Of a stretch of DNA of 64,000 bases, positions 2,345-48,839 are shown one piece after another. Source of the stretch: Aphelocoma coerulescens (taxonomy: Eukaryota > Chordata > Aves > Passeriformes > Corvidae). Positions within the stretch are counted from its first letter, which is position 1. The number at the start of each line of letters is the position of its first letter. The notes below the pieces were generated by a model. That model was not told the DNA's origin. It searched no databases and saw nothing but the letters and a program-made list of their open reading frames with translations. A program made the position numbers and the translations under genes. Where the stretch lies: positions 186,001 through 250,000 of the forward strand of contig NW_027184064.1 of NCBI RefSeq assembly GCF_041296385.1, in the 5' to 3' direction.

Positions 2345-2394
2345 TTCCCATTTACATTTTAATAGAGGAGGATGCCCACCCTCAATGGCTACCC

Positions 2395-2964
2395 CTAAAA
2401 GGGCGATTTCGTAACCAGGGTTGCACCCAACTGACTTAAAACATCCCTTCTCAATAAATTCAGTGGGATAGGCATAACATATGGCCTAACAGTACAATGG
2501 CTACCATCCAAAAGCTTACAGGATACAATATCAGCACTTATCCAGGTATTTTGCTGTCTACTCACACTCCCAATCACTGTTTCTGCATTTTTTATGGGCT
2601 ATTTTTTAGGCTAGTTGTTAATTCCAATTATAGTAACATCTGCTCTTGTATCAACTAACATTGACAATTTGCAAGTGCTCCCATCTTTCCATGTTAGTAA
2701 AACTTTGCATTGTGGCTTTGAATTTTTTATATCCATTGCTAGACAAATTTGTGGACTACCAGTGGATCCAAAGGCACCTGTGCCACACAGCTGATTTGTT
2801 GTCTTAGGCACCAAAGATTGGAATGGTATTAGTTGCCCAATTTTTTCTCCCTCCAGTATTTGCACTGGAGGATTTGGAGTCCAAACCATGATATGTATGA
2901 TGCCTTGATAGTGTGCGTCAATAACCCCTGGTAACACAAACACTCTTTGACAGGAGATTGACAA
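2395..2964 (-). pseudogene. pro: pro remnant: dUTPase-like domain and aspartic protease
   Basis: The translated minus strand shows the dUTPase motif GVIDAHYQG followed by EGEKIGQLIPF. It then shows the protease active-site strand, here LVDTRADVTI instead of the usual DTGA, and further down the protease C-terminal motif RRDVLSQLGATL. A break near 2580-2610 separates the two ORF pieces. The DTGA-to-DTRA change would remove the catalytic glycine, so this protease is dead. Family role: cleavage of Gag and Pol. The dUTPase-like domain is a common passenger of class II pro frames. Confidence 0.85.
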
Positions 2965-3074
2965 TCATCTTAGCAAATGTGCACTTAATCATTTCTCTAA
3001 TGGTCCCTTTGTGTTGGTAGGGACACACTGCACTTGTGAATCAAGCAGTGTTACTTCCCGGACCATGGAAAAGT

Positions 3075-4340
3075 CTACTCCGACACTCTCTGAGGTGGCG
3101 GTGGAGAGGCAATCCAAGCAGCCCTCTGCTGGGTCCCTGTATTGCTCATTGCACTGCGGCCCCCCATGCTCTTCTTCCAGTTTCCCAGTGGGGTACCATC
3201 CTTTTTAAAATTTGACCTGCACTCAAAGGCCCAATGCCCAGTTTTCTGACAACGATTACAAACTCCAGAAAAGGTAGCTTTTTCAGTTTTAGAAGCTCGG
3301 CACTGTGCTTTTACATGCCCTTTTATCCCACATTTAAAACAACACAGTCCCTTATCTCTTTGACCTTGTTTTACAAGTGGCTTTACAGTTGCGGCAAATG
3401 CTTCAGCCATTAAGATAGCATTTTCTGCCAGTGTCCTGACTTTCTCACATGCCTCCATCGTTGCTGCTACTGAAGCAGTGAGAGGGAGTGCCATCAGAAT
3501 TCTTCTACATGCCAAATTGGCATTTTGAACTGCTAGGGCCATAAGTACTGAATCCCTTGCTGTTTCAGGAATGCCGGACCTTTGAATACTTTCTCACAAT
3601 CCATCCAAAAAGGACATGTATGTTTCGGTTGGTCCTTATGTTACTTTAGTAAAAGGTGGCACTATTCTGCCATCCTCAGGCATTTGCCTCAGAGCCTCTC
3701 GAGCTGCATGGGCTGACTGATGTAAAATTTGTACATGCATTCTGCTCTGTACTTGAGCATCAATAAAATGTGCCTGTTCTTATTAGCACTTCTACAGACA
3801 CAAATTTCAAAGGGTCACCATCATCCCTAAGTTAGCTACAGCAGCTTGTTGACATAAATCAGTCTACTTAGACTTCTACAGTATATATTGCATCCCTGTG
3901 AGCAATAATTGCAGTAATTGTTGACAATCATAAGGGCAAAGAATATTGGACCTAAAGATGTTATCAATAAATGACTGTGTGTAAGGATTCTGCAACCTAC
4001 AATCACAAACTGATTTTCTAGCTTCTTTAATCACTTCCCAAACAAATGGTGTCTAGTGGTTAGGTTTACAGTTCCTGTCACGATTTGTGCCTCCTAACAC
4101 TACTGGATAAGCCCCAGGAACAAATTCTCCCTCTGTTATGGCATTCTGTGTAACTCCTTTCCAGCGTTCTCAAAATAGCTTGGCCCTGACCCATCACTTG
4201 GCCCTGATCCACTGCCTGCTGATCCACCCCCCCTCATTTGTTTTCCTTCTCTCTTCCGTAACTCTTCTGCTTCTGTTTCCTTACGTCGAATCCACTGCAA
4301 ACGATCTCAATCTGACTCTCGCCCCAAACCCTGAGTTACT
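3075..4340 (-). pseudogene. gag: gag remnant: capsid and nucleocapsid
   Basis: The capsid part (about 3543-4340) is legible only in short pieces with stops and shifts, but a major-homology-region-like stretch can be read near 3600. The piece at 3542-3075 is open for 155 codons and carries two CX2CX4HX4C zinc knuckles, CFKCGIKGHVKAQC and CNRCQKTGHWAFEC, the RNA-binding motifs of nucleocapsid. The following protease region is in another frame, so gag and pro were separate frames or have been shifted by decay. Confidence 0.85.
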
Positions 4341-17700: not shown

Positions 17701-18304
17701 ACACTAAAAGGGTTCCAGCTGCACCCGGGCCGTGCAGCTGGAATTTGCTTATCACTGTAGGTCACGTGATCTTTGCCAGCCTCAGATGAATTTTGGCTGC
17801 ATTAGGTGAGGGCCGGCCTGGCTGAACCACGCCGTGGGGCCACCTGCACGGAGCAGGGCTGCAGATGGAACAGGGCCGCACGGCTCCAGGATGGCTGTCT
17901 CCCGGCTGGCCCGGGCCACACTGAGGGGGCTGTGCTGGGTGTCCAGCAAGCTGAAGTGTCTGAGATCTTAGCCAAGCCATGCTGCAGCTGACCTGGCTGA
18001 CCCAGCCGAGCAGGGCCCGGCCTGGCCCTGCTGGGCCACGCTCTAGGCCCCCAAATTACCTGTCCAAAAGCCAGAAGCAAGAGAGCTTTCCCAGGCTTTG
18101 CTCGTTCTTAAATGTGGATCACAGAGGCGTGTCAAGCTTCTTAAATGGCTTAAAAAAGTTGCCAATATTCAGACTAGCCTAGGTTCTATTGGGTCTAGAG
18201 GAAGCTGTAAGCATCTCTTTGCAAAGAATCACTTCTGTGGCTGATGGAGTCCTCTAACTAAAAACTCAAACTATGCTAAACACCAAGGAAGAAATAAGGA
18301 CATG
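17701..18304. other. GC-rich segment, no gene seen
   Basis: 17710-18060 is GC-rich and low in complexity (GGCCCGG and CTGGCCCTG blocks) and gives ORFs on both strands without domains. The remainder is unassigned. Confidence 0.4.
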
Positions 18305-18646
18305 TGTGGATACAAAAATGCTGTTAGCAACAAATTTTCCTGCTTCTTTCTAAGCCTGTGAGATACTTTTCTCTCTCACGAAGATATTTGCAGAGTTCTG
18401 TAAACTATGAATACCTGTGACCTTGTAGAACTACGTTTATGGTACAGTAGAAAAATATTTTGACAATGGATGTTTTAGGATTCTAGCCAATCACCCCAGG
18501 GGGTGGCTGATCCATTGCCTAATTAGACTATGAGGAAAAAAGTCTATAAAAGAGTTTGTAAAATAATTTTAAAAATCAATCTTGCTGCATAGTTCCTGCC
18601 TGTTGGATGTCTCTCCTCCTCCCTACGGCTGCGGGATACAGTAATA
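18305..18646 (+). mobile_element. Solo LTR, same family as the LTRs of the 45-50 kb provirus
   Basis: TGTGGATACAAAAATGCTG ... CAGTAATA aligns along its length with the LTRs at 44969 and 49540, sharing GTAGAAAAATATTTTGACAA, TGGCTGATCC and TCTATAAAAGAG. It lacks about 25 bp near the 3' end. Flanks GACATG and GATGTG may be a decayed 6-bp duplication. No internal sequence remains. Confidence 0.85.
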
Positions 18647-20427: not shown

Positions 20428-22107
20428 ATGGGATCTGAAGTTTCTGCACACCACAGAGAAATATACTATCAAGTTCAAAGCTACCTTTCTTGTACTGGGC
20501 ATAAGTACCCTAAAATCCAGTTCAACCTTTTGTGCGATGGCTTTTCCAGTACTTTCTTAATCTGACCTCCGAGGATATGAGATCTCCTGAATTTTGGGAT
20601 AGTGTGGGGAGAAAACTCTCCTCTCTCAGACGATCGGGAGATGAAACAGTTTCAAAATTTTTTCCTCCCCTGTTACTAAGTTACACTTCACCAGAGAAAA
20701 ACACAGTACATGAAAAGCCACTGCAAAAACACCCTGTTAATTCCCTTATACCCTCTCCCAACCCCTGTGTCCCTGACCCCTCTTCCCTATGCTGGAAAAC
20801 ACAGCTAGAGCAGACTTCTTTTTAGCACAGGAGAGCTACTGACCTCCTGGCCCAGCCGTGTCTTCTCAGCACCCTGCCTCGGACGGGAATCCGGAGCCAG
20901 TCCCAGGACCTTTCCAACCCCTCTTTTCCACTCCTTTGTCCCCAGTTTCTAGCCCTCATGTTTTAAGCGAAAACGAAAAAACCCCTTCTCCCCTGATCTC
21001 TTTGTCCCCAGGGACAGCCATTGCCATGTGCCCACAGCCCTGGTAAAACCCCCTCCCCCCAATCCCTTTTCTCCGAATTTATTTGTCTCCAATAATGGCA
21101 GATGCCACATTTCTTCACCTCTGAACTACCGCCTCCCACAATCCCTTTCTCCCCATCCCACAAATCCCTTCTTGTCCCCACCCCTTCCCACTCCTGTGTT
21201 GAAACCTAACCCCACCCCCAACCCCACCCCCACAGCGTTGTGTTTCACCCTTCCCTCTGTTCCTGCCCATGATGCAAGTACCGCCCCTGCCTCCCACAAC
21301 CCCACCCCCAACCCCTCCCCTCCTCCTGCTGCCTCCGCCCCTCCACTCCCTGCCCCTGCCCCTCCACTCTCTGCCCCTGCCCCTCCACTCCCCGGCCCTG
21401 CTTCCCATTTTCCCCCTCCAGGTTCCCACAGTCATGTGACTACCCCTTTACATCTGGGAACCCATAGTTACCAGGAAGTGTCTCCACTTGTAACAACATG
21501 GGAGCTAATCCTGGCTGGACACCTTTCCCTTATTCTAATATCAAAGATTTGTGCAAGGCAATTAAGGAGTTTTGGATGCATAGTAACTATTTTAAGAGCC
21601 TTTAAGCTACTTTTTCAACACATTTGCTCATACCTCATGATTTGATTACAATAATGCAAACTTCTCACAGCTGGTGAATTTGTGTTGTGGAAACAAAAAT
21701 GGAAATTAATTTTATCTGATTTATTGCAAATTCTGTGGCAAACTCCAGATAATTATCTGGACTTTGATGACAATTATATCACATTAGACCTTTTATCTGG
21801 TGACAATAATATGGCAAATCCTCAAAAACAAAGCAAGCTTGTTCCTCGTCCAGTTCTTACTGAAATGACATGTGCTGATGAAAAGGCCTTAACGTTACTA
21901 CCATCTCAGACTCCTGAATCTCATTATACCAACATCAAACAATTGCCAAATGACAATATTATTCAGTTTTATAACCATTTGCATGAAACAATCTTTCCCA
22001 GGTCCCTAATCCTGACCTCCAACAAGCGTTCCCACTTGAACTTCTCCAGGCAAATACGAATGATGCTTGCAAACAAGTAATCCTGAGTCTTCCCTTGCGT
22101 CCACCCC
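20428..22107 (+). pseudogene. gag: gag of the older provirus, 5' part
   Basis: The ATG at 20428 (MGSEVSAHHR) opens a matrix-like domain that shifts frame by about 20560. FWDSVGRKLSS parallels FWDSVGNKLYS in the younger gag. A long Pro-rich linker follows (20860-21430, repeated CCCCTGCCCCTCCACTC-type units). Capsid follows from about 21460, with a major-homology-region-like NIIQFYNHLHE near 21955. Frames change several times. The segment ends at the CACCCC target site of the younger provirus. Confidence 0.85.
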
Positions 22108-22255
22108 TGTGGGATATGCCCAGCCCTTGCCCTGGAGGGATCTCTGCTGAGACAAGAGATTTCGCAATTGCCCAGCAGGACTCCCTGAAAGGGGCAGCCG
22201 CTTCTTGGGTCAGGGCGAGGAAAAGTGGTCCCACAATCCTTTGAGAGACACTATG

Positions 22256-22338
22256 CAGACCCTCTGTAACCCATTGGTCCGTCCCAGACCCTCTGTAACC
22301 CATTGGTCCGTCCCAGACCCTCTGTAACCCATTGGTCC
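22256..22338 (+). repeat. 29-bp tandem repeat in U3, nearly three copies
   Basis: Units start at 22256, 22285 and 22314 (the last partial). Each contains CCCATTGGTCC, an inverted CCAAT box. The same array is at 30668-30750 in the 3' LTR. Stacked CCAAT boxes about 20-100 bp upstream of TATA suggest an NF-Y-type enhancer array; this is inference. Confidence 0.9.
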
Positions 22339-22359
22339 CCTGCTGATCCCCTGTATCCC

Positions 22360-22437
22360 TATAAAAGAAAGCCACCTGGCTCTGTGGGGGAGAGCTCGTC
22401 CTTGGCTTCCCCTTCGCCGGAGGGAGCCGACAATAAA
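22360..22437 (+). promoter_or_regulatory. LTR promoter and poly(A) signal
   Basis: TATAAAAG at 22360-22367 and AATAAA at 22432-22437. The counterparts in the 3' LTR are at 30772-30779 and 30844-30849. Transcription should start about 25-30 bp after TATA. Confidence 0.85.
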
Positions 22438-22701
22438 GCTACCTCTGTGCGGAACCAGCCACACGGGCCTTCTCGTCTCTCTCTGGTCTGGTTTGGCCTG
22501 GAGGATGCCCTGCAGAGCTGAGCTGAAATCACGAGCTGATAATCACTAAAGAGCTGATAGCCTCTGCAAGGGCCCTCCTTTGCCAGCAGCTGAGAGGAAG
22601 ACACTGGGCCTCGGGAAGGCGATCCCTTTCGGGACCATCTCTCCGGACCAGTCACCTCTTCCTGGGTCAGAGCCACGGACCCCACCACCAGCTGAAATAA
22701 C

Positions 22702-22719
22702 TGGCGCCCGAACAGCCTT
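22702..22719 (+). other. Primer-binding site, tRNA-Lys3-like
   Basis: TGGCGCCCGAACAGCCTT: the first 14 bases equal the lysine-3 primer site (TGGCGCCCGAACAGGGAC). Two bases (AC) separate it from the LTR end. Confidence 0.75.
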
Positions 22720-22949
22720 GGATCCCGGATCCCGGACCTGGCCTGAGCTGCGTCTTGATCACCAAGACAGAACCAGCCGTTCGTGTGCTGACCCTCTGAA
22801 GATAGGCCTACGTTTTAGCAGGACTTTTCGACGAGGACAGTTCGAGACCCTCACCTCCCACCAAGGACTGAAGTCCCTGAGGATCGAACTGCCAGACCAC
22901 CCCCCCAGCAGACCTTTCCAGGAGCCAGCCCCATCAGAAAACAGGATTT

Positions 22950-22955
22950 GTAAGT
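22950..22955 (+). promoter_or_regulatory. Candidate splice donor for env mRNA
   Basis: GTAAGT in the leader between the primer site and the gag ATG, a strong donor consensus and the position expected for the retroviral major splice donor. Confidence 0.5.
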
Positions 22956-23041
22956 TTAAGTTTCGGGCTCTCCTTCCTTTGCGCGCATTTTACTTTTGGT
23001 TTGTTTTTTTTTTCTCTTTTTCTGCTGAGGGAGGGACCAAG

Positions 23042-25652
23042 ATGGGACAAAGGCAAGCTAAACCCAGCCTTTCCCATCCTGAGAGAGACCTATACCCCTT
23101 TCTTCTAACTCTTCTCTTAAAATCTGACTTTAAATTCTCTAAAGGTATTCTTTCTAAGAAAAAGCTTAAATCTTTCAGTAATTGGATAGCTCTAAATTTC
23201 CCTGATGCTACTACAAATTCTGTTCTTTCTAATTCATTCTGGGACAGTGTCGGAAACAAACTGTATTCTTCTCAAGCCTCGGGAAACCTTTCCGTTTCCA
23301 AATTCATTCCTTTATTTCATTTACTAGTTAAAACGTGTCGTGCGAACCCCCCCCCTCAGCCAAAGCCCTTCTCTGCCCTTCCCCCCTCCCACCCCCCCTC
23401 TCCGCCTCTGGAAACGGCCAGCCAGAGCGCGGACTCGGCCGGCCGCCCCGACCCTGGCCCGGCCGGGGCGCCGGCCCTCCCACTTCCTTCCCCCAACCCC
23501 CTGTTCCCGGCGGTCCTCCCGTGCCCGCCCCCCCCCGCTCGCCCCCTCGGTTCCGCTGCCACCCCCCAGGCAGCGCGCGCGGGATCCATCCCAGACCCAT
23601 CCCCGCTCCCCGGGATGGATGCCCCTGAGCCGCCCCCAGCCCCGTCTCCCTGTGCCCCTGGTATCTCGCAGCCCTCCCCGCACGGCACCACCCTTCCCCC
23701 TCTCGCACCGGCCCGCGGTGCCTCCGACCCCCCCCCACCCCACCGCGTCCCAGCCTCCTGCCATATCCCTGCCACACGCGGCCCTGTTCTCCCCCCACCC
23801 CAGCACGGCGGCCCCGTCCCAGCGAGCCGCCCCGCCGCCGCTGCCCCCCCCTGCACCCACGGAGCAGCCATGGTACAACACGGGGCCCGTCCCGCAGAGC
23901 CCCGCGCATGCACTGTGGAGCCCGGAACAGGCGTCACGCCCCCCGCCAGCATCTGCCCCTCTCGCCGCTGGCGGGACCCAGCTATCCGCGGCACCGCCCC
24001 AGGCTATCGCCCATAGACCCTTGCAGGCGCCGGCACATCCGCTCCCCCCCTCCCCAGCTGCATCTTGCGCGATTCCTGCTGATGTTCCCCCTCTCCCTGC
24101 ACCCCGCCCTCCCCCTACCACGGGTTCTTGCGCAATCCCCATTCCCCCCGCTGCTGCGCTAGAGCCCACCACCCCCCCCCACCCTCCTTTCGCCCATCCC
24201 TACTCCACATGGAATTGCGAAACCGGCACTACCTGTAACCCGACCTCTCCCCAAACGACCTGCTGCTGTACAACCTCTCCACCCCCATGCTGCCATAACG
24301 GGACCCCTTCCCACCCCTCAAACCACCCCCGACCCCCCGCTATTCCCGACCTAGGTAAAGGAAAGTCGGCATTTCAAAAACGCCGCGCTACGCCCCCTGT
24401 ATCCCAGCCCCGCCCTGCCGCAGCTTATTCCTCCTATTCAGATGACAGTAGCAGTGGCTCTGACTCTGAATCGGAGGACCGATGGGCACAGACACGCAGG
24501 GAAGCGAACCGAGAGGGAGATTGGGAATTGGCTCAGAAAATTTCAGCCTTTCCAGTCATTATAGGAAAAGGGAGGAGGGGTGGTCCAACTACAAAAATAT
24601 GGGAACCTATCCCATACAAAGAAATCAAAGAGCTTTGCAAGGCAGCAAAAGAACATGGGAGAGGGTCACATTTCTTTAGAAACCTCTTGGAAGCCACTTT
24701 CTCTGCCTATACATTCGTACCACATGATATTAAAAACCTTATTAATTGCATCCTTTCCCCTGCTGAATATATGTTATGGGAAAGACATTGGAAAAGACAT
24801 TTAAAAACACTGTCTGACACTTATGCTAAAGATGCAAATCAGACAGATTGGACAATAGAACAACTGGCTGGAGAAGGTGACCTCCAAAAACCCCTAGATC
24901 AAGCTACAACCTTACCTGAAGTAGCATTACAAGACATAGCTACTGCAGCTAAGACATCACTGTTTCTTACCCCTGATGATTCTGTTCCTACACAATATTT
25001 CTCTAACATCAAACAGTCAGCAAATGAAAGCTTCATTCAGTTTGTTGATCGTTTAAAAGCTAGCTTAGAAAAACAGATAGAAAGTCCAGATGGACGAAAG
25101 GAACTGTTGAGCAAACTTGCCATGGTAAATGCTAATGAACAATGTAAGAATATCTTGAGGGCCCTACCCATGAACACAGAACCTACAATAGAACAAATGA
25201 TAGAGAGCTGTACTAGACACACATCCACAGAGAACGCAATGACCCAAACAGTTGTAAAGGGCATCACAGAGGGAGTTTCTGGTGCATTTGCTGCAGCAGT
25301 CTCTAAGGAAAACACCCGCTGTTTCTATTGTGGTGAACTTGGACACTTTATAAAGGACTGCCCACAAAGGTCACCCACCCAGGACCGTCGTGCTACCTAC
25401 CAAAGGCACCAGAGACAGCAACAGCACCAGCAGCGTCCAAAAAACTTCTATCGGAGCGCGGTGTCAAGGCCCCGCGCCCAGACAACAAATCAAAGGCCAT
25501 ACTACCCCGCCCCGGCTGTGAACTCCACATCGGACCACCGACAGCAGACAACTGGACCTCACCCGGCACCATCATCCCAGGCGATCCCAGAACACATGAG
25601 AAGGATCCAACACACGGAGCTCTACCGATCGGGACCAGACGCCAACTGGTAA
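23042..25652 (+). CDS. gag: gag of the young provirus (one frame change near 23728-23736)
   Basis: The ATG at 23042 (MGQRQAK, good Kozak context) opens matrix: FSNWIALNFPDA and FWDSVGNKLYS. A very Pro/Ala-rich, GC-rich linker of about 330 codons follows. The matrix frame stays open to a stop at 24016. Capsid and nucleocapsid lie in the +1 frame, open from about 23328 to the stop at 25652. Judged by composition, the natural switch is at the run of nine C at 23728-23736, where a one-base length change would account for it. Capsid has a major-homology-region stretch QSANESFIQFVDRLKASL (about 25014). Nucleocapsid has a single knuckle CFYCGELGHFIKDC. If the shift is real, capsid is not made; if it is a sequencing or assembly slip, gag is intact. 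Confidence 0.85.
25439..25477 (+). promoter_or_regulatory. gag-pro -1 frameshift site with downstream stem
   Basis: A AAA AAC at 25439-25445 is in the gag frame exactly as a tandem-slippage site requires, and the -1 frame is pro, open from here on. Ten bases on, GCGCGG (25456-25461) can pair with CCGCGC (25472-25477). The same heptamer serves gag-pro slippage in mouse mammary tumour virus. Confidence 0.8.
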
Positions 25653-26290
25653 CATCACTGCCATTTAACTTTGTTGACAAGCGTTTTTATCGTATTCCCA
25701 CAGGAAAGTATGGACCGCATGATGGCCCACGGGACATTCTTATCCTAAGCGATACCATCCATAGTCCAGAACAACTCTTTGTATTACCTGAGATACAAAC
25801 AGTGCAACCTGGACAAGAGATTCTTGTCCAGCTTTGCTGCACAGACATACCTTTCTTTCTCCCACAGGGAACACCAATTGCTCAAGCCTTTTTACTTCCA
25901 CAGAACCGCCCAGAACAGCTTCCTCTCAATCCTACAGCAATGTGGATAGAGATTGTGGGCTCAAATAAACCAACCATCGAGTGCAGCTTGTTCTGTAAAG
26001 GAGAGAGGGTCTACCGCCCAGGGATGCTGGACACCGGAGCAGACGTGACCATCATCGCCCGCTCCGAGTGGCCAGGGAATTGGGAACTGGAGCCAGTGGC
26101 AGGTATGATCTCCGGGATTGGTGGAGTTGCAGTGTCCATGAGAAGCAAACGAAATGTTGTCATTGAAGGACCTGAGGGCAAGATAGCGACCACCCGACCA
26201 TTCGTGGTAAGAGCCCCCATCACCCTATGGGGCAGAGACCTTCTATCCCAATGGGGTGCCACTCTTACCATTCCCAGCCAGGATTTCTGA
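25445..26290 (+). CDS. pro: pro of the young provirus: dUTPase-like domain and protease
   Basis: There is no start codon of its own. It is read by -1 slippage at 25439-25445 and is open to TGA at 26290. The first half ends in a dUTPase-like strand, LPQGTPIAQAFLLP (about 25865), but the motif-3 signature seen in the other proviruses is not clear, so the enzyme may be inactive. The second half is a retroviral aspartic protease: MLDTGADVTI with active-site Asp codon at 26030, a flap region rich in Gly (SGIGGVAVS) and the C-terminal LWGRDLLSQWGA. All catalytic residues of the protease are present. It would cleave Gag and Gag-Pro-Pol during particle maturation. Confidence 0.9.
   Translation, partial: LLSERGVKAPRPDNKSKAILPRPGCELHIGPPTADNWTSPGTIIPGDPRTHEKDPTHGALPIGTRRQLVTSLPFNFVDKRFYRIPTGKYGPHDGPRDILILSDTIHSPEQLFVLPEIQTVQPGQEILVQLCCTDIPFFLPQGTPIAQAFLLPQNRPEQLPLNPTAMWIEIVGSNKPTIECSLFCKGERVYRPGMLDTGADVTIIARSEWPGNWELEPVAGMISGIGGVAVSMRSKRNVVIEGPEGKIATTRPFVVRAPITLWGRDLLSQWGATLTIPSQDF
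26281..26287 (+). promoter_or_regulatory. pro-pol -1 frameshift site
   Basis: G GAT TTC in pro frame is followed directly by the pro stop TGA (26288-26290). A -1 slip puts ribosomes in the pol frame. It is the counterpart of the G GAU UUA pro-pol site of mouse mammary tumour virus, differing in the last base. Confidence 0.75.
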
Positions 26291-29118
26291 CTGGGGCCAC
26301 TGAGAAACGCGCGCTGCCATCTACTCCCCCGCTCACCTGGAAGACTGACAACCCAAAATGGACAAGGCAGTGGCCCCTTGAAAAAGAAAAACTCAGCGCG
26401 CTGGAAGCCCTGGTGGAAGAGCAACTTGCCAAAGGTCATATCACCGAGACCACCAGCCCTTGGAATTCCCCTGTCTTTGTGCTAAAAAAGCCCGGCACAA
26501 ACAAATGGAGACTACTCCATGACCTACGAAAGATCAATGAGGTCATTGAACACATGGGCCCCCTCCAACCCGGCCTGCCATCACCAGCGATGCTGCCCCG
26601 AGACTGGCTGCTTGCCATCATAGACATTAAAGACTGTTTCTTTAACATCCCACTCCATCCCAAGGATGCACCACGGTTCGCCTTCTCCATCCCCTCTCTT
26701 AACGATGAAGCCCCACTCAGAAGATACCATTGGCTCGTCCTCCCACAAGGCATGAAGAACAGCCCGACCATCTGCCAGTGGTACGTCGCCCACATTCTGT
26801 CCCCCATCAGGAGCCTGTTCACAGAGGCAATCATTTACCACTACATGGATGACATACTAATCTGTGCATCAGAAAAGACTTACTTGGACAGAACTCTTAA
26901 AAAGACAATTGAGGCCATAGAAGAAGCAGGATTTGAGATTCGTGAAGACAAAGTGCAGCACTCCAGCCCATGGACTTACCTCGGCCTCCAGATCCGGGAG
27001 AGAACCATCGTACCCCAGCAACTCGCCATCAAAAAGGACCCTAAAACCCTAAGGGACTTACACAGCCTGTGCGGATCCATAAATTGGATACGCCCCCTAC
27101 TGGGAGTCACAACAGAAGACCTTGCTCCTCTCTTCAACCTCCTCCATGGCAGCAAAGATTTGGACTCTCCATGCGCCCTCACACCTGAAGCCCGAGGTAC
27201 CATCGCCAAAGTCCAGGAAGCCCTGTCTTCACGCCAAGCCCATCGCGTTGAACCCAGCCTGCCTCTTCAGTTTGCAGTTTTGGGTAAAGCTCCCCGTTTC
27301 CATGGACTGATCTTCCAATGGGACCCTAAACTCAGAGACCCCTTGCTGATACTTGAATGGGTCTTCACAAGCCATCAACCTACAAAGACATTAACCACCT
27401 TCCAAGAAGTAATGGCACATTTAATAAAAAAGGCCAGAACTCGTCTCCGCTCTCTTGCAGGGTGTGAGTTCACATGCATATACTTGCCATTGACCACTGG
27501 AGATCTGAAGCTGTTGCTCCAGACCAATGAGAGCCTCCAGTTAGCCCTAGATAGCTACACAGGCCAAATTTCCATTCACATGCCAAAACATAGACTTTTC
27601 TACCGTGATGCAGCTTTTAATTTCATTCCAAAATTAATCCAAAGTAGAAAACCTCTTAAAGCTCTGACCGTCTTTACCGATGGGTCAGGTTCGTCACATC
27701 GGTCTGTCCTGACATGGAGACAACCCAATACCCAAAAATGGGAATCTGATATCCAAATAGTAGAGGGATCTCCACAGATTGCTGAGTTAGCAGCTGTCGT
27801 CAGAGCCTTTGAGAAGTTTAAAGATGAACCTTTTAATTTGGTCACCGATTCGGCTTATGTCGCTGGTATAGCTATGAGGGCTGAACATGCTTTTCTAAAG
27901 GAGGTCTCCAACAAAAAATTATATCAATTGGTCTCTACATTAATCCATTTAATCTCACACAGAAAACAGCCTTACTACATTATGCATGTGAGGTCACACA
28001 CCGACCTCCCTGGTCCCATTGCCGAAGGGAACAGGAGAGCAGATGCACTGGCCATGCCAGCAGAGACTGCAAACGTCCCTGACATCTTTGCCCAGGCGAA
28101 GTTGTCACATGCATTTTTTCACCAAAATATTCCTGCCCTCGTCAGAATGTTCAAGCTTTCAAAAGATCAAGCAAAAGCGATCATTGCAACGTGCCCGAAC
28201 TGCCAGAACTACCAAATACCATCTATGGGTACCGGAGTCAACCCCCGTGGTCTGAACAGCTGCCAATTGTGGCAAACTGATGTAACACACTTCCCATCCT
28301 TTGGGAGATCCAAATATGTGCACGTGTCAGTTGACACATTTTCTGGGGCAGTGTTTGCATCAGCCCATGCAGGGGAAAGTGCCGTCCACGTCATCAAGCA
28401 TTTCCTCCTTGCCTTCGCCACCCTGGGAGTCCCTGAAGAAGTCAAAACAGATAATGGGCCTGCCTACACCTCTCATAAGCTAAAAGATTTCTTCAACCAA
28501 TGGGGAATAAAACACAAGACAGGCATACCCAGCAATCCCACAGGACAATACATTGTAGAAAGGACCCACCAAACCCTAAAAAGAGTCCTCAACCAGCAAC
28601 GGAGAGAAACAGAAATCTTGTCTCCTGTTGAAAGACTCTGTAAGGCTCTCTATGTCATTAACTTTCTAAATGGTACATCGTCAGAGCCTGACCCCCCAGT
28701 ACTCCGCCACTTCTCAAACTCAACCCAAGCTAAGCTCACGGAGAAGCCTCCAGTGCTGGTAAAGGACCCTGAATCACACCAGGTCTCTGGGCCTTTCCAA
28801 TTGATTACCTGGGGGAGAGGCTACGCCTGTGTCCAGCTACCATCCGGCCCGAAGTGGTTCCCAGGAAAAAGTATAAAACCATACTTAGGCCCTACAAACA
28901 CTGCTACCACAAACACAAAGAACTCTCCTGAGACAAATACAGGACCTCCCCAAAACCAGACCAGCTCGGCATGGAGACGAAAACGTCGCCAGATGCCCAC
29001 CAACCAAGAAAAAGATCGTCCCACCACACGGCAGCAGACGAAACAGAAAGCTGAACAAGAAGCTACAGCAAAAAGTCAGGCCGTAGGCCAGACACAGCCT
29101 GAAAAAACTGATCCTTAG
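26287..29118 (+). CDS. pol: pol of the young provirus: RT, RNase H, integrase
   Basis: Open to TAG at 29118, and open upstream to 26227 (codons numbered from 26227). [35 protein letters not shown] and catalytic YMDD at 26842. RNase H: acidic residues at codons 485 (FTDGS), 520 (IAELA), 541 (TDSAY) and 606 (RADAL). Integrase: zinc finger H628-X3-H632-X23-C656-X2-C659 and catalytic D685, D742 and E778 with 35 residues between the last two, then a C-terminal domain (GPFQLITWGRGY) and a Lys/Gln-rich tail. Every expected catalytic residue is present. It would copy RNA to DNA and integrate it. Family affinity by motifs: class II, betaretrovirus-like. Confidence 0.95.
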   Translation: MTGATEKRALPSTPPLTWKTDNPKWTRQWPLEKEKLSALEALVEEQLAKGHITETTSPWNSPVFVLKKPGTNKWRLLHDLRKINEVIEHMGPLQPGLPSPAMLPRDWLLAIIDIKDCFFNIPLHPKDAPRFAFSIPSLNDEAPLRRYHWLVLPQGMKNSPTICQWYVAHILSPIRSLFTEAIIYHYMDDILICASEKTYLDRTLKKTIEAIEEAGFEIREDKVQHSSPWTYLGLQIRERTIVPQQLAIKKDPKTLRDLHSLCGSINWIRPLLGVTTEDLAPLFNLLHGSKDLDSPCALTPEARGTIAKVQEALSSRQAHRVEPSLPLQFAVLGKAPRFHGLIFQWDPKLRDPLLILEWVFTSHQPTKTLTTFQEVMAHLIKKARTRLRSLAGCEFTCIYLPLTTGDLKLLLQTNESLQLALDSYTGQISIHMPKHRLFYRDAAFNFIPKLIQSRKPLKALTVFTDGSGSSHRSVLTWRQPNTQKWESDIQIVEGSPQIAELAAVVRAFEKFKDEPFNLVTDSAYVAGIAMRAEHAFLKEVSNKKLYQLVSTLIHLISHRKQPYYIMHVRSHTDLPGPIAEGNRRADALAMPAETANVPDIFAQAKLSHAFFHQNIPALVRMFKLSKDQAKAIIATCPNCQNYQIPSMGTGVNPRGLNSCQLWQTDVTHFPSFGRSKYVHVSVDTFSGAVFASAHAGESAVHVIKHFLLAFATLGVPEEVKTDNGPAYTSHKLKDFFNQWGIKHKTGIPSNPTGQYIVERTHQTLKRVLNQQRRETEILSPVERLCKALYVINFLNGTSSEPDPPVLRHFSNSTQAKLTEKPPVLVKDPESHQVSGPFQLITWGRGYACVQLPSGPKWFPGKSIKPYLGPTNTATTNTKNSPETNTGPPQNQTSSAWRRKRRQMPTNQEKDRPTTRQQTKQKAEQEATAKSQAVGQTQPEKTDP

Positions 29119-29194
29119 TTTATATGTTATCACCCCTTGTTACCCCAAAATACCCCCTTCCCTCAACCTTTGTCAAACCTCCCTAAACCCCAAA

Positions 29195-29213
29195 ACCTCC
29201 CCTCCCTCCACAG
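29195..29213 (+). promoter_or_regulatory. Candidate splice acceptor for env mRNA
   Basis: A pyrimidine-rich run ends in CCTCCCTCCACAG just upstream of the env ATG at 29267, as expected for a spliced env message joined to the 22950 donor. Confidence 0.45.
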
Positions 29214-29266
29214 AGCTAACAAATCTTGCTTATATTCCCTCTCAGAAGCCCCATCCCTGCCCAAAG

Positions 29267-30562
29267 ATGAAATTTATCTACGTTGATGCTGTCCTCACCG
29301 CTGCCTCGATGTTCTTCGCCGTGCCACACGCCTTCAGCTGGCTTGTCCCACAGCCTAGCCATAATGTTTGGGTGACCTTAGCAAAGACACTCAATCAAGA
29401 CAATCTGTGCCTGTCCATGGGAAGCGTAGACAACCCACTCTCTACGTGCCTGGTAGGAATTCCCTTAGTAGCAGATGATTGGCCCATCACTAACTCAGAA
29501 CTCCTCCGCACCACAGGTAAGAGGCCCAACCCGGTAGATACTTGGGATGAGTGGACAAAGGTTCTGCCAAATGCCCGAGATGAACCCCAAGAATTAAACC
29601 TGCTGGGGTCCTCCAAAGCAACATATTGTGTCAAATTTTACTTTAGACTGCAAAGCCAACGCTGGCCAGAGATTGACCAAGCAAAAAACACATACAGGAA
29701 AGACATATCGCCATTTAACAAAGCCTATAATAGTCAAGATTGGTGCAATTACACCAGCCAAGTACTCTCTGTGTCCACTCTCCACCCAAAAGTGTTGCCC
29801 CGGGGAGTCTTTCTTATCTGTGGTGACAGAGTATGGGCCGGGATCCCCTCACGCCTCCAAGGAGGCCCCTGTAGCCTTGGCAAGCTTTCTACTCTCACCC
29901 CAAATATTACATTGTTACATAATTGGAGACAAACAAACACATCAACACGTCGAAAGAGATCCTTTTCTGAGTTTGACGAAAGTTGTGACAGCCACATTTA
30001 CAACTGGAATAAGGCAGGACAAGTTGCAGCTTCCGTATTCACCCCTTGGTTAGCTGCACTCAAGGCCCTTGGGGATATCAATCACCTAGGGTGTTGGCTA
30101 AGCAAACAAGCTAATGCGACATCTGCCGCCTTGAGCGATCTTTTAAGAGATGAGGAGACTACCAGACACGCAACCCTACAGAATCGAGCAGCGATAGACT
30201 ACCTACTGCTCGCCCACGGACATGGCTGCCAAGACTTTGAAGGGATGTGCTGCTTCAATCTTTCTTCACACTCAACATCCATCCAGGCAAACATCCAGAA
30301 ACTACAAGAACTAGTAAAAGACCTAAAAGTAGATAAGAGCCTAGACTGGGTCAAAGACCTTTTTGGACGATGGGGAATAACGGGATGGATTGCATCTCTG
30401 ATTAAGGGAGTTTTGTGGGTATTCATTGTAATTATTATTGTGTTACTTATGTTCTCTTGCCTCCTACGTTGCTGCAGAAAGACTGCTGGGAATGCCTTTT
30501 TAAATACAGAAGGGGGAGTTGTGGGATATGCCCAGCCCTTGCCCTGGAGGGATCTCTGCTGA
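29267..30562 (+). CDS. env: env of the young provirus, alpharetrovirus-type envelope
   Basis: 431 codons from an ATG in good context to a stop 43 bp inside the 3' LTR. Order: hydrophobic N-terminal signal (about residues 8-24), a short surface subunit, furin-type site RRKR (228-231), then the transmembrane subunit. Cys240 and Cys276 flank a hydrophobic stretch, the internal fusion segment arrangement of avian alpharetroviruses. Next come an immunosuppressive-domain-like LQNRAAIDYLLLAHGHG (from 304), CX6CC at 321-329, a helix-rich region and a membrane anchor (about 381-402). N-glycosylation motifs occur at NYT, NIT, NTS, NAT and NLS. The surface subunit is clearly shorter than in exogenous alpharetroviruses; no break marks a deletion. 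It is class-mismatched to the beta-like pol, so env was probably acquired by recombination. Confidence 0.92.
   Translation: MKFIYVDAVLTAASMFFAVPHAFSWLVPQPSHNVWVTLAKTLNQDNLCLSMGSVDNPLSTCLVGIPLVADDWPITNSELLRTTGKRPNPVDTWDEWTKVLPNARDEPQELNLLGSSKATYCVKFYFRLQSQRWPEIDQAKNTYRKDISPFNKAYNSQDWCNYTSQVLSVSTLHPKVLPRGVFLICGDRVWAGIPSRLQGGPCSLGKLSTLTPNITLLHNWRQTNTSTRRKRSFSEFDESCDSHIYNWNKAGQVAASVFTPWLAALKALGDINHLGCWLSKQANATSAALSDLLRDEETTRHATLQNRAAIDYLLLAHGHGCQDFEGMCCFNLSSHSTSIQANIQKLQELVKDLKVDKSLDWVKDLFGRWGITGWIASLIKGVLWVFIVIIIVLLMFSCLLRCCRKTAGNAFLNTEGGVVGYAQPLPWRDLC
30508..30518 (+). other. Polypurine tract
   Basis: AGAAGGGGGAG directly before the 3' LTR, the primer for plus-strand DNA synthesis. It lies inside the env frame. 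Confidence 0.8.
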
Positions 30563-31111
30563 GACAAGAGATTTCGCAATTGCCCAGCAGGACTCCCTGA
30601 AAGGGGCAGCCGCTTCTTGGGTCAGGGCGAGGAAAAGTGGTCCCACAATCCTTTGAGAGACACTATGCAGACCCTCTGTAACCCATTGGTCCGTCCCAGA
30701 CCCTCTGTAACCCATTGGTCCGTCCCAGACCCTCTGTAACCCATTGGTCCCCTGCTGATCCCCTGTATCCCTATAAAAGAAAGCCACCTGGCTCTGTGGG
30801 GGAGAGCTCGTCCTTGGCTTCCCCTTCGCCGGAGGGAGCCGACAATAAAGCTACCTCTGTGCGGAACCAGCCACACGGGCCTTCTCGTCTCTCTCTGGTC
30901 TGGTTTGGCCTGGAGGATGCCCTGCAGAGCTGAGCTGAAATCACGAGCTGATAATCACTAAAGAGCTGATAGCCTCTGCAAGGGCCCTCCTTTGCCAGCA
31001 GCTGAGAGGAAGACACTGGGCCTCGGGAAGGCGATCCCTTTCGGGACCATCTCTCCGGACCAGTCACCTCTTCCTGGGTCAGAGCCACGGACCCCACCAC
31101 CAGCTGAAATA
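30520..31111 (+). mobile_element. 3' LTR of the young provirus
   Basis: 592 bp, no difference from the 5' LTR found by eye. It is followed by the target duplication CACCCC (31112-31117) and the resumed gag of the older provirus. Confidence 0.95.
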
Positions 31112-31117
31112 CACCCC

Positions 31118-31529: not shown

Positions 31530-32150
31530 GTGGACCACACGCCAGACTTTACATACCTTTTTGTTATTGGGGACACTCGAGAAACACTTTCTGGGATAGA
31601 GGTTACACCCACACTCATGAAAGTGCATCAGAATGGCGGTTCTAACCTAATGGTACAATGGAAATGTCCACCATACTTTATGTCAAAAGGTCAAGTCATC
31701 GCACAAGCCATTCCACTGCTCAAATACCTGCCCACAGATGGTCATATCCCGGCCATCTGTTGGACTGAAGTTTTGGGAAACGATAAACCTATAGTGGAAT
31801 GTAAGCTCCGTTACGAATCACATAAAATCGGTATCATGGGAATGATAGACACAGGTGCTGATGTCTCTGTCATTCCATTTGATAAGTGGCATGCACAATG
31901 GGAATTGCAATCTCAGGGTATCATACAAGGGATTGGAGGTACCCAAATTGCGAAGCAATCCAAAAACACCATTCAAATTGAAGGTCCTGAAGGACAAATA
32001 GCGACACTTCGTCCATATGTCCTAGACACCAAATTCACCCTGTGGGGAAGGGATGCCATGTCTCAATGGGGAACAAAAATTGATATCACCCCTAGACATC
32101 AAAATTTTCCCTTGCAGCCACTGGAGCTGAGTGCCAACCACAAAAGTTAA
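31530..32150 (+). pseudogene. pro: pro of the older provirus: dUTPase-like region and protease
   Basis: 206 codons open. The region before the protease parallels the dUTPase-like part of the younger pro (SKGQVIAQAIPLL). The protease active site MIDTGADVSVIP is intact, as are GIGG and the C-terminal LWGRDAMSQWG. As an isolated frame without gag upstream or pol downstream it has no route to expression, but the protease domain itself is unbroken. Confidence 0.85.
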
Positions 32151-32560
32151 CTTGGAAAACAGATGAACCAGTGTGGGTTAACCAGTGGTCACTAAAAGAA
32201 GAAAACTTAGAGGCACTCAAAACACTAGTAGATGAACAATTGGCTAAAGGGAACATTGTACCAACTAACAGCCGCTGGAATACACCCGTGTTTGTAATAC
32301 AAAAACCGGGAAAGAACAAATATAGGCTTCTCCAAGATCTTAGAGAAATCAATAAAGTTGTTGAAGACATGGGACCCCTTCAACCAGGTATGCCATCACC
32401 TTCAATGCTCCCACAACATTGGCATTTGGCTGTCCTTGATATTAAAGATTGCTTCTTTCATATTCCACTCCACCCTGCAGATGCCCCTCGATTTGCATTT
32501 TCTGTGCCCTCTATTAATCGTGAAGCTCCCATGAAATGTTACTATTGGCTTGTGCTTGCC
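32151..32560 (+). pseudogene. pol: pol of the older provirus: RT fingers only
   Basis: WVNQWSLKEENLEALKTL, RWNTPVFVIQKPGKNKYRLLQ, LQPGMPSPSMLP and DIKDCFFHIPLHP follow the younger RT closely. Homology ends just after YYWLVL, before the YMDD box, and unrelated sequence follows. The truncation removed the rest of pol, env and the 3' LTR. Confidence 0.9.
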
Positions 32561-33125: not shown

Positions 33126-36100
33126 TTAAACTATACTTTACATTTTTTACCAAATGCACTGAAAATAAGCGTATAAATAATATTGATAAAATAGTTACAG
33201 CTAAATAGAAACATTGGGTCATAAAACTCTGGTTTTCATAACTGCTATTTGTACAATACACAGAAGCCTTTTTTGCCTATAAAGAAATGTTTCCTTACAG
33301 TTTGGATCAGAAGATCCAGTATTGCCATCCTGAGATTTTTGTTTTGAAAGTGATAATCTGTGGTCAGTGCTTTGTGTATATTCTTTGCTGTGCCTTGTAT
33401 ATATTATGGATATAAAGCCAGTATAGATGATGTCCTTGCTTCAGTAGCAATACTAAATAAGGCAGAGGCTCTGGCTGGAGTATTGGAGCTGTAGACTATC
33501 CTCCACTGCCTTGAGGTGGGGGGGATCTCTAAAGAAATATAATATTGGCCATGCTCTGGGAGTATAACAGAAAGATCCTCATAGCTCTAAGGATTTGTCT
33601 CCTGGAACTCTGAGGAATATATTGTAAAGAAGAAGGCTGCTATCTTTTCCAACAATCTCCTGTGCATTCAAGAGGATAATTTAAGTTCTTGTCTGAGAAT
33701 GAAACAAATAATAGTGGTAATTAGTTCTTTTCCTCTGTCTGCACATCACTCATTGAGTTTGGGTAGGTTTATATTTTATTTATTTTTTTCCTTTAAGTAT
33801 TACATAGTAAGGTCTTCCAAATTCCCAAATTCTGCTTCACTTTATTTTGTAGGCCAGACTGGTTCATCTTCTATCGGCTGTGTTATTGCAGACCATGTCT
33901 GAATGGATTTTATTTTTCATCTTGAACATTATTACATTCAAACTGTATGAACCGAACATTTTATTTTATCATTATTTTACCAATTTGCAAAGGAATACAC
34001 AATTCTGAAGACAAGTCATGTGACTCCATTTGCGCTTTTCAGTGGAAGAGAAGATTTACAATGTCCTACATTCACAGCATTATTACAGTAATATTGCACC
34101 TAGTTTTCAGTAAGATAGGTCAGGTTCTGGAAGCAGGTAACCATGATAGCATAGAGGTCCAAGAGTTCCAGTTCGGTTGTTTTTTCTTGAAAAATAGCTA
34201 ATGTGTCTCAACATTGTGCTGAAACTTGTTGTACAGACACTGACATCTGAACTCCTTGCTGGACTTCTGTATCTCAAAATCAGATACAGTAAACCTGTGT
34301 TTCCTTATAGCTTTAAGAATTTGGTTCAAATCTATAAGAGCAAGAAAAGGGTGCCATATTAACACAAGATAAAGAATATGTTAATAAAGCGGTTAAGGGA
34401 CTGCTTTTTTATACAAATTGGAACAGCGATTTGGTTGTTTGGTGGTTTTTTTTTTTTTGCTTCTCAAAAGGATTTTAGAAGTGGTGGGGTAAGAAACTGT
34501 ATTTTTTAATAGGTTGGCCTTAAAAGAAGAATTACAGGGGAAATAAAATGTGGAAAATAGTTAATCTAGAATTATATGTCTTTTTTATACAGAGTTTCAG
34601 AACTGAAAACCAAGAGGAGAGAGTCCAGACAAGATGATTTAACATAATGAATTCAAAATACCATTCTTTTCTCTCTGGATTACAGCTCTATACCTCAGGA
34701 TATTAATAGGAAATACATAACAATTAATCTCTAACTCTTAAAAATGGATTATGAAGTTTTATATGCAGTAAACTGTAAGACTTCACATTTTAATCTGACT
34801 TGCATTTTGGTGAAAGCCTGGAATCTTCTGCAATTTGCCAGATGTCAAGGGATTTAGAACAATAAGTACGCAAGTAATATTTTGGATCCTTCATCTCTCT
34901 TCTTACGACAATTAATGCATTTATTTTGCTCCTATTTTTATTCCATCAGGGTATTTGATCATAAAAATGTATAGTCATTCTTTTCTTGTTTTCAACCACT
35001 CAAAGAGCATTAATCAAAACTATTCAGAACTTCTTGATCTGCAGCAGTGACAAGCACTATATTGGTAAAGTCAGTGGGCATCAGCAGATCCCCTTTGATA
35101 GCACATGGAGGGGTGTTCCAGCAGGACTGATGTTTGCATGGTTCTAATTCTGTGAAATACACCATTCTAGTGATGGAAAAAAATGGAAACAGATTCTGAA
35201 CTTTCAACCCAACACATAAAAAAATAATAGGGCAGATAATTTTCAGTGGAAATTTCTTTAGCCCCAGTGCTGTGGATGATGATTACTCTTCCTACATCAT
35301 TTGGCCAGCTACCAATGCAGACGCGTGTTACTCCGCTTATGGACAAGAAAACCAGAACAAGTGATTTTTCAACAAAACACTTATCAGGACCTTAGAGTGC
35401 TTTGTGCTGCAAATGTTGCATGGGAGATAGGGAAACAATTCCATTTTAGAGTATGCGCTAAGAAGACAAGGTTAAAAGTTACAAACCCTGGGTTCTGTTT
35501 CTAGATATGTTACTGATTTTGCTTATTATCTCAGTCATGTAATACTTGCTGCTTCCTTTTTTTTGCATGCTTCCTTGAGATATTAAAGCATAACTCAGAA
35601 AGGTACTATAAGGTTAAAGTACTTTTGAGATGCCTGGTGCTGAAAAACTTGTAGCTATTGTTAAGGCCCATTGGCCTATTCCTGCTTCTTTTCTGAGAAG
35701 CTATGAAATTCTCATCTGTATTTTAGTGGTCTAACAATCTGTTGTTATGGGGGAGAGGCATAATAATAAAAATTTTTGAATCTGTAGGGATGTATTTACC
35801 ATTTTGTAGCTGCCTTTCAGTCTCTGAGCCATTAATGAGAAAAAGGAGAAGTATCAACCCTGTTTTCAACTGGTGGCCCGTACACTACTGTCCACGTGCT
35901 CAGATTTGAAGGCAAACAATCCTCGCTGGGCTCATAGTGAGGAATTACTTGGATTCAAAATACTAGACTAGTATTTTATTTCTACCAGGACAGTCCATTG
36001 GGCAGTCTCTATCATGTGCATTTCAATATTTAATCCTTCTCTATGTTTGCTGTGCAAAGCTCTTTCAGAATTATGGTGTGCCCACTATTTTACCACCTAT

Positions 36101-44968: not shown

Positions 44969-45344
44969 TGTAGATACAAAAATGCTGCTAGCAAGGATTT
45001 TCTTGCTATTTTCTAAGTCCGTGAGAGACTTTTCTCTCACGCAGAAGAGGTAGCAGGGAATGTAAACAACCAAGCCACCTGCAACCTTGAAAAGTCTTGT
45101 TTATGGTATAGTAGAAAAATATTTTGACAATGGATGTTTTAGGATTTTAGCCAATCACCCCCAAGGGGTGGCTGATCCTTTGTCCAATTAGACTATGAAG
45201 AAAAAGGTCTATAAAAGAGTTTGTAAAATAATTAAATCAATCAATCTTGCTGCACAATTCCTGCCTGCTGGATCTTCTCCTCCTCCTCCTCCCTATGGCT
45301 ACGGGACATGGTGATATACCCTAGGGCCTAGGGCAGCAGTAATA
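44969..45344 (+). mobile_element. 5' LTR of the deleted provirus
   Basis: TGTAGATACAAAAATGC ... GCAGTAATA: TG...TA ends. CCAAT at about 45150 and TATAAAAG at 45210-45217. Confidence 0.92.
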
Positions 45345-48086: not shown

Positions 48087-48839
48087 AGAGTGGCACAGGT
48101 ACAGGCACAGGCCTACTCAGCCTCCCTAGAAACGGCACCCAGGGGATCAGATGGTTTTGACGTCCATACCTCAGCCGCAATCGTCTTAGACTCTAGCAGT
48201 ATTTATAAGGTTCCCTTGGATGCATACGGACCCTTAGCCCAGGGATCCAGTGCAATGCTGGGGGGAAAACCTGACATTGCCCATCAAGGAATCTTAGTGC
48301 ACTCAGGAGTTATTGACGCTGACTTTAAAGGTCAAATTTGCGCTATGGTCTCCATGCAAAAACCCCCTGTAACTATTCCTGAAAAGACCTGCCTTGCTAA
48401 ATTAGTGCCTTTTAAGTCTTGTGTCCCCAGGATAGAACAACCAACTCACGAAGATAGCGGCAGTGGATCTACGGGACTTCCGCAGGCCTTCTGGACTGCA
48501 GACATCTCTGACCAAAGGCCACAGATGACATGTACCCTGATCCTGCCGAACGCCCGTCCACCCTGGATTCAGCTTCGAGGTTTGATTGATATAGGTGCTG
48601 ATGTAACTATTATCTCCTTCTCTGCATGGCCTCCCTCATGGCCTTTAGCCCCGGTGGGATCGACCATCGCAGGGTTAGGAGGAACCACACAGAGCTATTT
48701 AAGCAAACGGCCTGTGGTGGGGAAGGACTCAGAGGGGTACACAGCTACAATTAGGCTTTATGTTACTACCACTTCCCTTAACCTTTGGGGACAGGATGTG
48801 TTGGCAGCTTGGGGGGTATGGATTGGGACAAATTTTTAG
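48087..48839 (+). pseudogene. pro: pro of the deleted provirus: dUTPase-like domain and protease
   Basis: In the same frame as nucleocapsid, separated by one TAG. The dUTPase motif 3 is GVIDADFKG, with PEKTCLAKLVPF as the following strand. The protease site reads LIDIGADVTII, with Ile replacing the Thr of DTGA, and ends with NLWGQDVLAAWG. 249 codons remain open, the longest intact frame of this element. The Thr-to-Ile change at the active site probably inactivates the protease. Confidence 0.88.

What the first reader, a model, noticed from the sequence alone, without database searches (positions are those of the whole stretch)
22102..31117. Very young, nearly intact provirus
Both 592-bp LTRs read identically by eye and the 6-bp duplication CACCCC is perfect. 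Pro, pol and env are open with all expected catalytic residues, and gag has only one frame change. Such an element may be polymorphic in the host population and could still be expressed. The identity of the LTRs is seen; the recent age is inferred.
Basis: partly seen in the sequence, partly recalled or inferred. Interest (0 to 1): 0.85.

Follow-up and report, generated by a model that had tools for sequence, protein, structure and literature searches.

The report
Recently inserted scrub-jay endogenous retrovirus
A nearly complete retrovirus sits in the DNA of a Florida scrub-jay with matching ends, so it got there recently by evolutionary standards, but the same genome holds several equally young relatives, so it is one member of a recently active family rather than a one-off.

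Summary
In detail: LTRs 22108-22699 and 30520-31111 match at 592 of 592 bases, with CACCCC on both sides. Pro, pol and env are open; gag lies in two frames. The host is taken to be a Florida scrub-jay (scaffold lengths). The provirus split an older endogenous retrovirus and joins class II (ERVK-like) gag-pro-pol to an alpharetrovirus-type env.

"Very young" means at most about 0.5 million generations (95% bound, zebra-finch rate), and is not exceptional: 9 of 19 related proviruses dated here also have substitution-free LTR pairs. Polymorphism and expression could not be tested.

And all 40 LTR rows examined end TG...TA, not TG...CA; 25 are solo LTRs with perfect 6-bp duplications. The gag break is a private one-base length change in a C-run, a kind of break that recurs in sister copies.

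The parts
22102..22107 (.). left copy of target-site duplication CACCCC
   Evidence: single copy at paralogous empty sites
22108..22699 (+). 5' LTR, 592 bp, TG...TA ends
   Evidence: (identical to 3' LTR)
22256..22338 (+). 29-bp tandem repeat, 2.9 units, upstream of the TATA-like box; LTR lengths in 19 dated copies run from 562 to 682 bp, in steps close to this unit
22360..22365 (+). TATA-like box (TATAAA)
22432..22437 (+). polyadenylation-like signal (AATAAA)
22702..22715 (+). primer binding site TGGCGCCCGAACAG, Lys3-type (type name recalled)
23042..24016 (+). gag part 1: matrix frame from ATG, 324 aa, starts MGQ, runs into a proline-rich GC-rich stretch
23328..25652 (+). gag part 2: open frame (stop to stop) with Gag_p24, Gag_p24_C and one CCHC zinc knuckle
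25439..25445 (+). AAAAAAC heptamer, in frame for a -1 shift gag to pro; the RNA after it does not fold better than shuffles (z -1.0)
25337..26290 (+). pro open frame, retroviral aspartyl protease with DTGAD; no dUTPase match
26176..29118 (+). pol open frame: RT, thumb, RNase H, integrase (YMDD at 26842, HHCC at 28108, D,D35E from 28279)
29267..30562 (+). env, 431 aa: Avian_gp85/TLV_coat match, RRKR at 29948, TM cysteines 9 and 45, CX6CC at 30227, membrane span near 30390-30460
30508..30519 (+). polypurine tract (agaagggggagt)
30520..31111 (+). 3' LTR, 592 bp
31112..31117 (.). right copy of target-site duplication CACCCC
21516..22097 (+). left part (gag homology) of the older ERV that the provirus split
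31557..32557 (+). right part (pro and start of pol homology) of the older ERV

Best explanation
This is a recently integrated provirus of a class II (ERVK/betaretrovirus-like) endogenous retrovirus family of the Florida scrub-jay that carries an alpharetrovirus-type envelope. Shown: its insertion with a 6-bp duplication into an older ERV, identical LTRs, open pro/pol/env, a gag split by a private one-base length change, and 18 full-length sister env copies 98-99% alike in the same assembly. Inferred: the family spreads through env-dependent germline reinfection (env and pol show a deficit of nonsynonymous changes across copies), and this copy came from a lineage not otherwise found among the scored copies, because its LTR carries private changes present in both LTRs, hence older than the integration. 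Also inferred: its integrase joins a U5 end that terminates in TA.
For: LTR identity and duplication; paralogous empty sites; domain matches; host from scaffold lengths C34 20,979,278 and C37 3,429,207, equal to the contigs of two env proteins named Aphelocoma coerulescens, and from assembly statistics in PMC11631490 (passages); dated sister copies; env open in 19 of 21 copies, window included; env 27 nonsynonymous: 33 synonymous codon changes against a neutral expectation of 76% nonsynonymous, P 2e-7, and 7:7 on this copy alone, P 0.03; largest mean env distance of 18 copies, 1.6% against 0.7-1.2%; nearest LTR 14 substitutions off and the largest nearest-neighbour LTR distance of 18 (2.7% against 0.5-1.9%); LTR branch 0.031 although its LTR pair is identical; TG...TA in 40 of 40 LTR rows and 19 of 19 dated proviruses.
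Against: A deficit of nonsynonymous changes can also come from cis-acting retrotransposition (for pol) or, for env, from host use. Changes were counted per distinct codon against the majority, not per tree event, so P values are approximate. In the 1.6-kb pol piece this copy is ordinary (rank 5 of 18 by mean distance), and by mean LTR distance it is third of 18, in the leader piece second of 18 (one leader alignment, C36:4250832, looks misaligned); so the signal is uneven and could partly be recombination. Node support around the LTR branch is weak (16-49 at the seven inner nodes with a value). Each own-genome DNA search scored only 40 candidates of 225 to 1397 (except), so a closer copy could have been missed. 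LTR identity could arise by gene conversion.
Confidence: 0.75

Rival explanations
1. The copy arose by retrotransposition inside the germline from an endogenous master copy, without infection; the master lies in an unassembled region, in the other haplotype, among unscored candidates, or was lost.
For: Many sister copies in the same genome; only 40 candidates scored per search; W sequence is about 90% interspersed repeats (PMC11631490 passages); the window contig itself is unplaced.
Against: Env stays open in 19 of 21 copies and shows a deficit of nonsynonymous changes, including on this copy alone, which is not needed for retrotransposition in cis.
Confidence: 0.3
2. The LTRs are older and have been made identical by gene conversion, so the provirus is not young.
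For: Possible in principle (general knowledge); nothing in the calls points to it.
Against: 9 of 19 other proviruses at other places also have substitution-free pairs, and 18 of the 19 have their own perfect 6-bp duplication, which fits recent activity of the whole family; pro, pol and env are open.
Confidence: 0.07
3. The gag frame change is a sequencing or assembly error in a long C-run, so the copy is fully open.
For: All 8 single-base length differences among 20 gag pieces lie in C-runs, at different places and in 1 to 4 copies each; the assembly is HiFi-based and the passages read name no polishing step.
Against: Real slippage in long C-runs is expected to outpace point mutation (general knowledge, no rate from a call); read data are not held here, so neither side was tested.
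Confidence: 0.35
4. Misassembly or contamination.
For: Unplaced 1.9-Mb contig.
Against: Flanks belong to a bird: CR1-like remnant near 33.0 kb (recognised from memory), and the older ERV has 39 other scored places in the same assembly for each flank; flank 33150-35950 is single-copy in this assembly; mean read length 14.55 kb exceeds the element (PMC11631490).
Confidence: 0.02

Closest known systems
Songbird ERVK/ERV2 endogenous retroviruses (e.g. Corvus moneduloides Pol protein P0158, Ifrita kowaldi P0185)
   Same: RT-RNase H part of Pol 94.3% identical to the New Caledonian crow protein over 530 residues and 85.2% to Ifrita over 521; 6-bp duplications
   Different: LTRs end TG...TA in all 40 rows examined; best env identities in the protein collection are 73-75%, to finch, thrush, warbler and indigobird proteins
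Human endogenous retrovirus K (HML-2) and betaretroviruses
   Same: Pol best PDB match 7sr6 (496 bits; labelled 'Polymerase', HERV-K RT recalled); Gag matches include ERVK member 8 and 24 entries; gag, pro and pol in successive -1 frames; Lys-type primer site (recalled)
   Different: no dUTPase match in pro; one zinc knuckle found; envelope not of beta type
Avian leukosis/sarcoma viruses (alpharetroviruses), envelope only
   Same: Env matches Avian_gp85 and the ASLV fusion subunit entries 4jpr and 5h9c; cysteines at TM positions 9 and 45, CX6CC
   Different: separate pro frame; longer LTR than ALV (recalled); pol closer to ERVK
W-chromosome ERV refugium of birds (Peona et al. 2021, PMC8310711; passages read)
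   Same: 15 of 19 dated sister proviruses lie on scaffolds C34-C38, taken as W by size
   Different: the window contig itself is not assigned to W

Membership tests
Class II ERV (ERVK/betaretrovirus-like) | 6-bp target-site duplication | tested here: met
   CACCCC; 18 of 19 sister proviruses; 25 of 40 LTR rows are solo LTRs with a perfect 6-bp repeat (two of these, L005 and L006, may be one insertion assembled twice)
Class II ERV (ERVK/betaretrovirus-like) | gag, pro, pol in three frames joined by two -1 shifts | tested here: met
   frames 0, 2, 1; heptamer for gag-pro found, none of the XXXYYYZ kind in the pro-pol overlap
Class II ERV (ERVK/betaretrovirus-like) | Pol and Gag closest to ERVK/betaretroviruses | tested here: met
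Class II ERV (ERVK/betaretrovirus-like) | dUTPase in pro | tested here: not met
   no Pfam dUTPase match at E 0.1 in 25337-26290, while the ERV at 48090-48839 has one
Class II ERV (ERVK/betaretrovirus-like) | beta-type envelope | tested here: not met
   Env is Avian_gp85/TLV_coat type with CX6CC
Retroviruses in general | LTR termini TG...CA | tested here: not met
   TG...TA in 40 of 40 LTR rows and in both window LTRs; boundaries fixed by adjacent duplications
Alpharetrovirus (genus) | alpha-type Env with Cys9-Cys45 fusion loop | tested here: met
   meaning of these positions recalled
Alpharetrovirus (genus) | pro in the gag frame and pol closest to RSV/ALV | tested here: not met
   pro in its own frame; 7sr6 496 bits against integrase entry 7jn3 158 bits (identity of both entries recalled, and they cover different domains)
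Polymorphic (unfixed) provirus | empty allele in the population | not testable with these tools
   only one primary assembly held; no second allele found in it

The most novel reading that the evidence does not exclude
The provirus is a recent germline entry of a circulating retrovirus lineage, distinct from the one that seeded the other scrub-jay copies, belonging to a songbird group whose integrase has shifted from the textbook CA to a TA end on the U5 side.
Probability: 0.3. Interest if true: 0.7.

Novelty: new member of a known kind. Interest (0 to 1): 0.42.

Why it matters
A retrovirus family with many identical-LTR copies and open env genes in a threatened bird with a pedigree and resequenced individuals gives a direct way to watch endogenization: the published parents and resequenced birds could show whether this insertion is fixed, segregating or new. 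The TG...TA ends, if general in songbirds, mean that annotation that requires TG...CA misses such elements, and they offer a natural test of how strictly integrases need CA. The recurrent gag breaks in C-runs show which part of such proviruses decays, or is misread, first.

Tried and rejected
Rejected: that the element stands alone in youth. Rejected: that the gag frame change is an inherited two-frame arrangement; copies sharing the same two deletions (C1, C38, C34:3308424, C3:155362843) include both one-frame and broken members, and this copy's change is private among 20 compared. Rejected: a dUTPase in pro. No tRNA gene and no Rfam family reached the threshold in the window. Not decided: W linkage of contig C644 (end pieces without tandem repeats; one flank single-copy). 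A source in crows was considered: the crow Pol is no closer to this copy (94.3%) than to the other 17 copies compared (93.0-95.1%), so no sign of it. Literature: search listings and passages only (PMC11631490, PMC12047795, PMC8310711, PMC6523648, PMC2615046, PMC5408687); no paper was read in full. No paper on this family was seen in the listings, and none on a vertebrate TG...TA retrovirus. These searches are few and no repeat library is held, so absence from print is not shown.
Full report
Observation. The two LTRs were compared base by base: 592 of 592 identical, no gaps, at 22108-22699 and 30520-31111. The flanks carry CACCCC at 22102-22107 and 31112-31117. The given coordinates 22102-31117 are therefore exact. 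The primer site TGGCGCCCGAACAG starts at 22702, two bases after the LTR, and a purine tract precedes the 3' LTR.

Host. Env hits with an organism name are birds, mostly passerines (best 120 of 266 listed). Two of them, named Aphelocoma coerulescens, lie on contigs of 20,979,278 and 3,429,207 bases; the window's own assembly has scaffolds C34 and C37 of exactly these lengths. PMC11631490 (passages) describes a female Florida scrub-jay assembly of 1.33 Gb with longest scaffold 168.97 Mb and N50 68.05 Mb, which match C3 and C7; its table gives 659 scaffolds and 1,330,898,477 bases against 660 contigs and 1,330,612,911 bases held here, a small difference. The source is taken to be GCA_041296385.1. 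By size, C34 is the W scaffold of about 21 Mb and C36 the 4.7-Mb unlocalised W scaffold; C35-C38 together give 20.5 Mb, the amount the paper states for additional W sequence (it says five additional scaffolds, I count four). This W assignment is inference. The window lies on C644 (1.9 Mb), which I could not place.

Anatomy. Gag_p24 and one CCHC knuckle, aspartyl protease with DTGAD, reverse transcriptase with YMDD, RNase H, and integrase with HHCC and D,D35E are present. Gag, pro and pol lie in frames 0, 2 and 1, with an in-frame AAAAAAC heptamer in the gag-pro overlap; the RNA after it does not fold better than shuffled sequence, and no such heptamer was found in the pro-pol overlap. Env (431 aa) matches Avian_gp85 and the ASLV fusion subunit and has RRKR, cysteines at positions 9 and 45 of the transmembrane subunit, CX6CC and a membrane span. 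It is an ERVK-like core with an alpharetrovirus-type envelope.

Insertion site. The provirus lies inside an older class II element: gag homology runs up to 22097 and pro-pol homology resumes from 31557 to 32557. In the assembly, the matches to the left flank and to the right flank overlap by exactly 6 bases in paralogs on C34 (13.29 Mb) and C37 (1.345 Mb): the undisturbed site in sister copies of the older element. Apart from the window itself the best places reach 91% (left) and 93% (right), and flank 33150-35950 has no other match than 144 bases at 81%, so no empty allele was found in this primary assembly.

Age. At 5.0e-9 changes per base per generation (zebra finch, PMC12047795 passages) zero differences has probability 0.5 at about 117,000 and 0.05 at about 506,000 generations; at 2.0e-9 per year the 95% bound is 1.27 million years. 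Scrub-jay rate and generation time were not found in the calls, and a W-linked place would mutate more slowly (general knowledge). 'Very young' is an upper bound only.

Family context. The LTR search scored 40 of 1397 candidates, all matches; after the window's own pair the best is 96%. Env DNA gave 41 match rows from 40 scored of 945 candidates; 18 other places are full-length at 98-99%, and two partial ones at 98%. For the 20 places nearest in env I fetched LTR pieces; 19 gave both LTRs (C3:59631727 did not). Nine of 19 have no substitution between LTRs, the other ten have 1 to 7. Eighteen of 19 have a perfect 6-bp duplication; in C34:19411930 the repeat is out of step. Three pairs differ by one 29-bp unit, and 15 of 19 are on C34-C38. 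Against 41.5 of 1330.6 Mb this W excess is large (P about 1e-19), though the 19 were picked by env similarity; it agrees with the W refugium of PMC8310711 (passages). Two of the 19 (C34:714197, C34:2847599) are more divergent in env and pol.

A source not among the copies scored. This copy's env differs from 17 other open, equal-length env copies by 16 to 24 bases. Its mean env distance is the largest of 18 (1.6% against 0.7-1.2%, which leaves out C3:59631727 and the two divergent copies). Its LTR is at least 14 substitutions from each of the others compared, and its nearest-neighbour LTR distance, 2.7%, is the largest of 18 (others 0.5-1.9%); by mean LTR distance it is third, in the leader piece second, in the pol piece fifth of 18. 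Seven LTR changes are private among these 18 and present in both LTRs, so they predate integration. Distinct codon changes in env number 27 nonsynonymous to 33 synonymous, and 7:7 on this copy alone, against a neutral expectation of 76% nonsynonymous (P 2e-7 and 0.03). The pol piece shows the same deficit (29:33 private with C34:714197 left out, P 8e-7; 7:8 shared, P 0.01). I read this as replication under selection for working proteins, envelope included, before integration, which favours reinfection over retrotransposition in cis; host use of env, and recombination, are not excluded. Node support in the LTR tree is low.

Gag. Matrix and capsid sides lie in different frames in 14 of 20 copies (window included), in one frame with a stop in 1, and in one frame without a stop in 5; C3:59631727 lacked both parts in its piece and is not counted. 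Among 23 length differences in these 20 pieces, 8 are single bases, and all 8 lie in C-runs, at different places. In 9 of the 14 broken copies, the window's among them, one such single-base difference is the only one that changes the frame; one further copy has two of them; four have longer differences as well or instead. That of the window copy is private. Copies sharing the same two deletions are partly broken, partly not, so breaks recur. Slippage in the run and HiFi error are both possible without reads. Copies with gag in one frame across this stretch exist.

LTR termini. All 40 LTR rows begin TGTGG and end AAATA (37) or TAATA (3). Twenty-five are solo LTRs with a perfect 6-bp repeat directly adjacent to both ends (L005 and L006 may be one insertion assembled twice); of the other 15, 12 are parts of proviruses and 3 have an imperfect or shorter repeat. 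The terminus is therefore TG...TA. The rows are the best matches to the window LTR, so family members with other ends could lie lower in the ranking. A second element in the window, LTRs 44969-45344 and 49540-49914, also ends TAATA, whereas the older element split by the provirus appears to end in CA. PMC2615046 states for HIV-1 that mutations of the CA abolish 3'-processing activity, and PMC5408687 that the terminal dinucleotides are highly conserved in vertebrate retroviruses (passages); PMC6523648 used TG...CA ends in curating songbird LTRs (passages). Two searches listed no vertebrate TG...TA retrovirus; this is not an exhaustive check.

Verdict. The element is a new, recent member of a known kind, in a family with many equally young members. 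The surprising parts are the TA end (well supported as description) and the missing source lineage (plausible inference).

Noticed in passing
window 44969-45344 and 49540-49914: A second, older ERV (LTRs about 93-94% alike, AGTACAC on both sides, dUTPase and protease at 48090-48839) whose LTRs also end in TA; a related LTR lies at 18298-18646.
   Followed up: partly
window 21-3725: A third class II ERV on the minus strand (gag, pro and pol pieces, 25-46% identical at protein level to the provirus).
   Followed up: no
L005 and L006 (C3 near 38.63 and 31.58 Mb): The same solo LTR with identical sequence and the same flanking bases occurs twice, 7,055,340 bases apart; a left-flank match pair on C3 has exactly the same offset. 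C3 may hold a multi-megabase false duplication or an unpurged haplotype.
   Followed up: no
window 23328-24016: Long open frames in several frames on both strands over the same GC-rich (about 66-79%) stretch of gag, probably a composition effect.
   Followed up: partly
L054/L074, L064/L084 and L068/L088: Three proviruses differ between their own two LTRs by one 29-bp unit, so the unit number changes within or after one replication cycle.
   Followed up: partly
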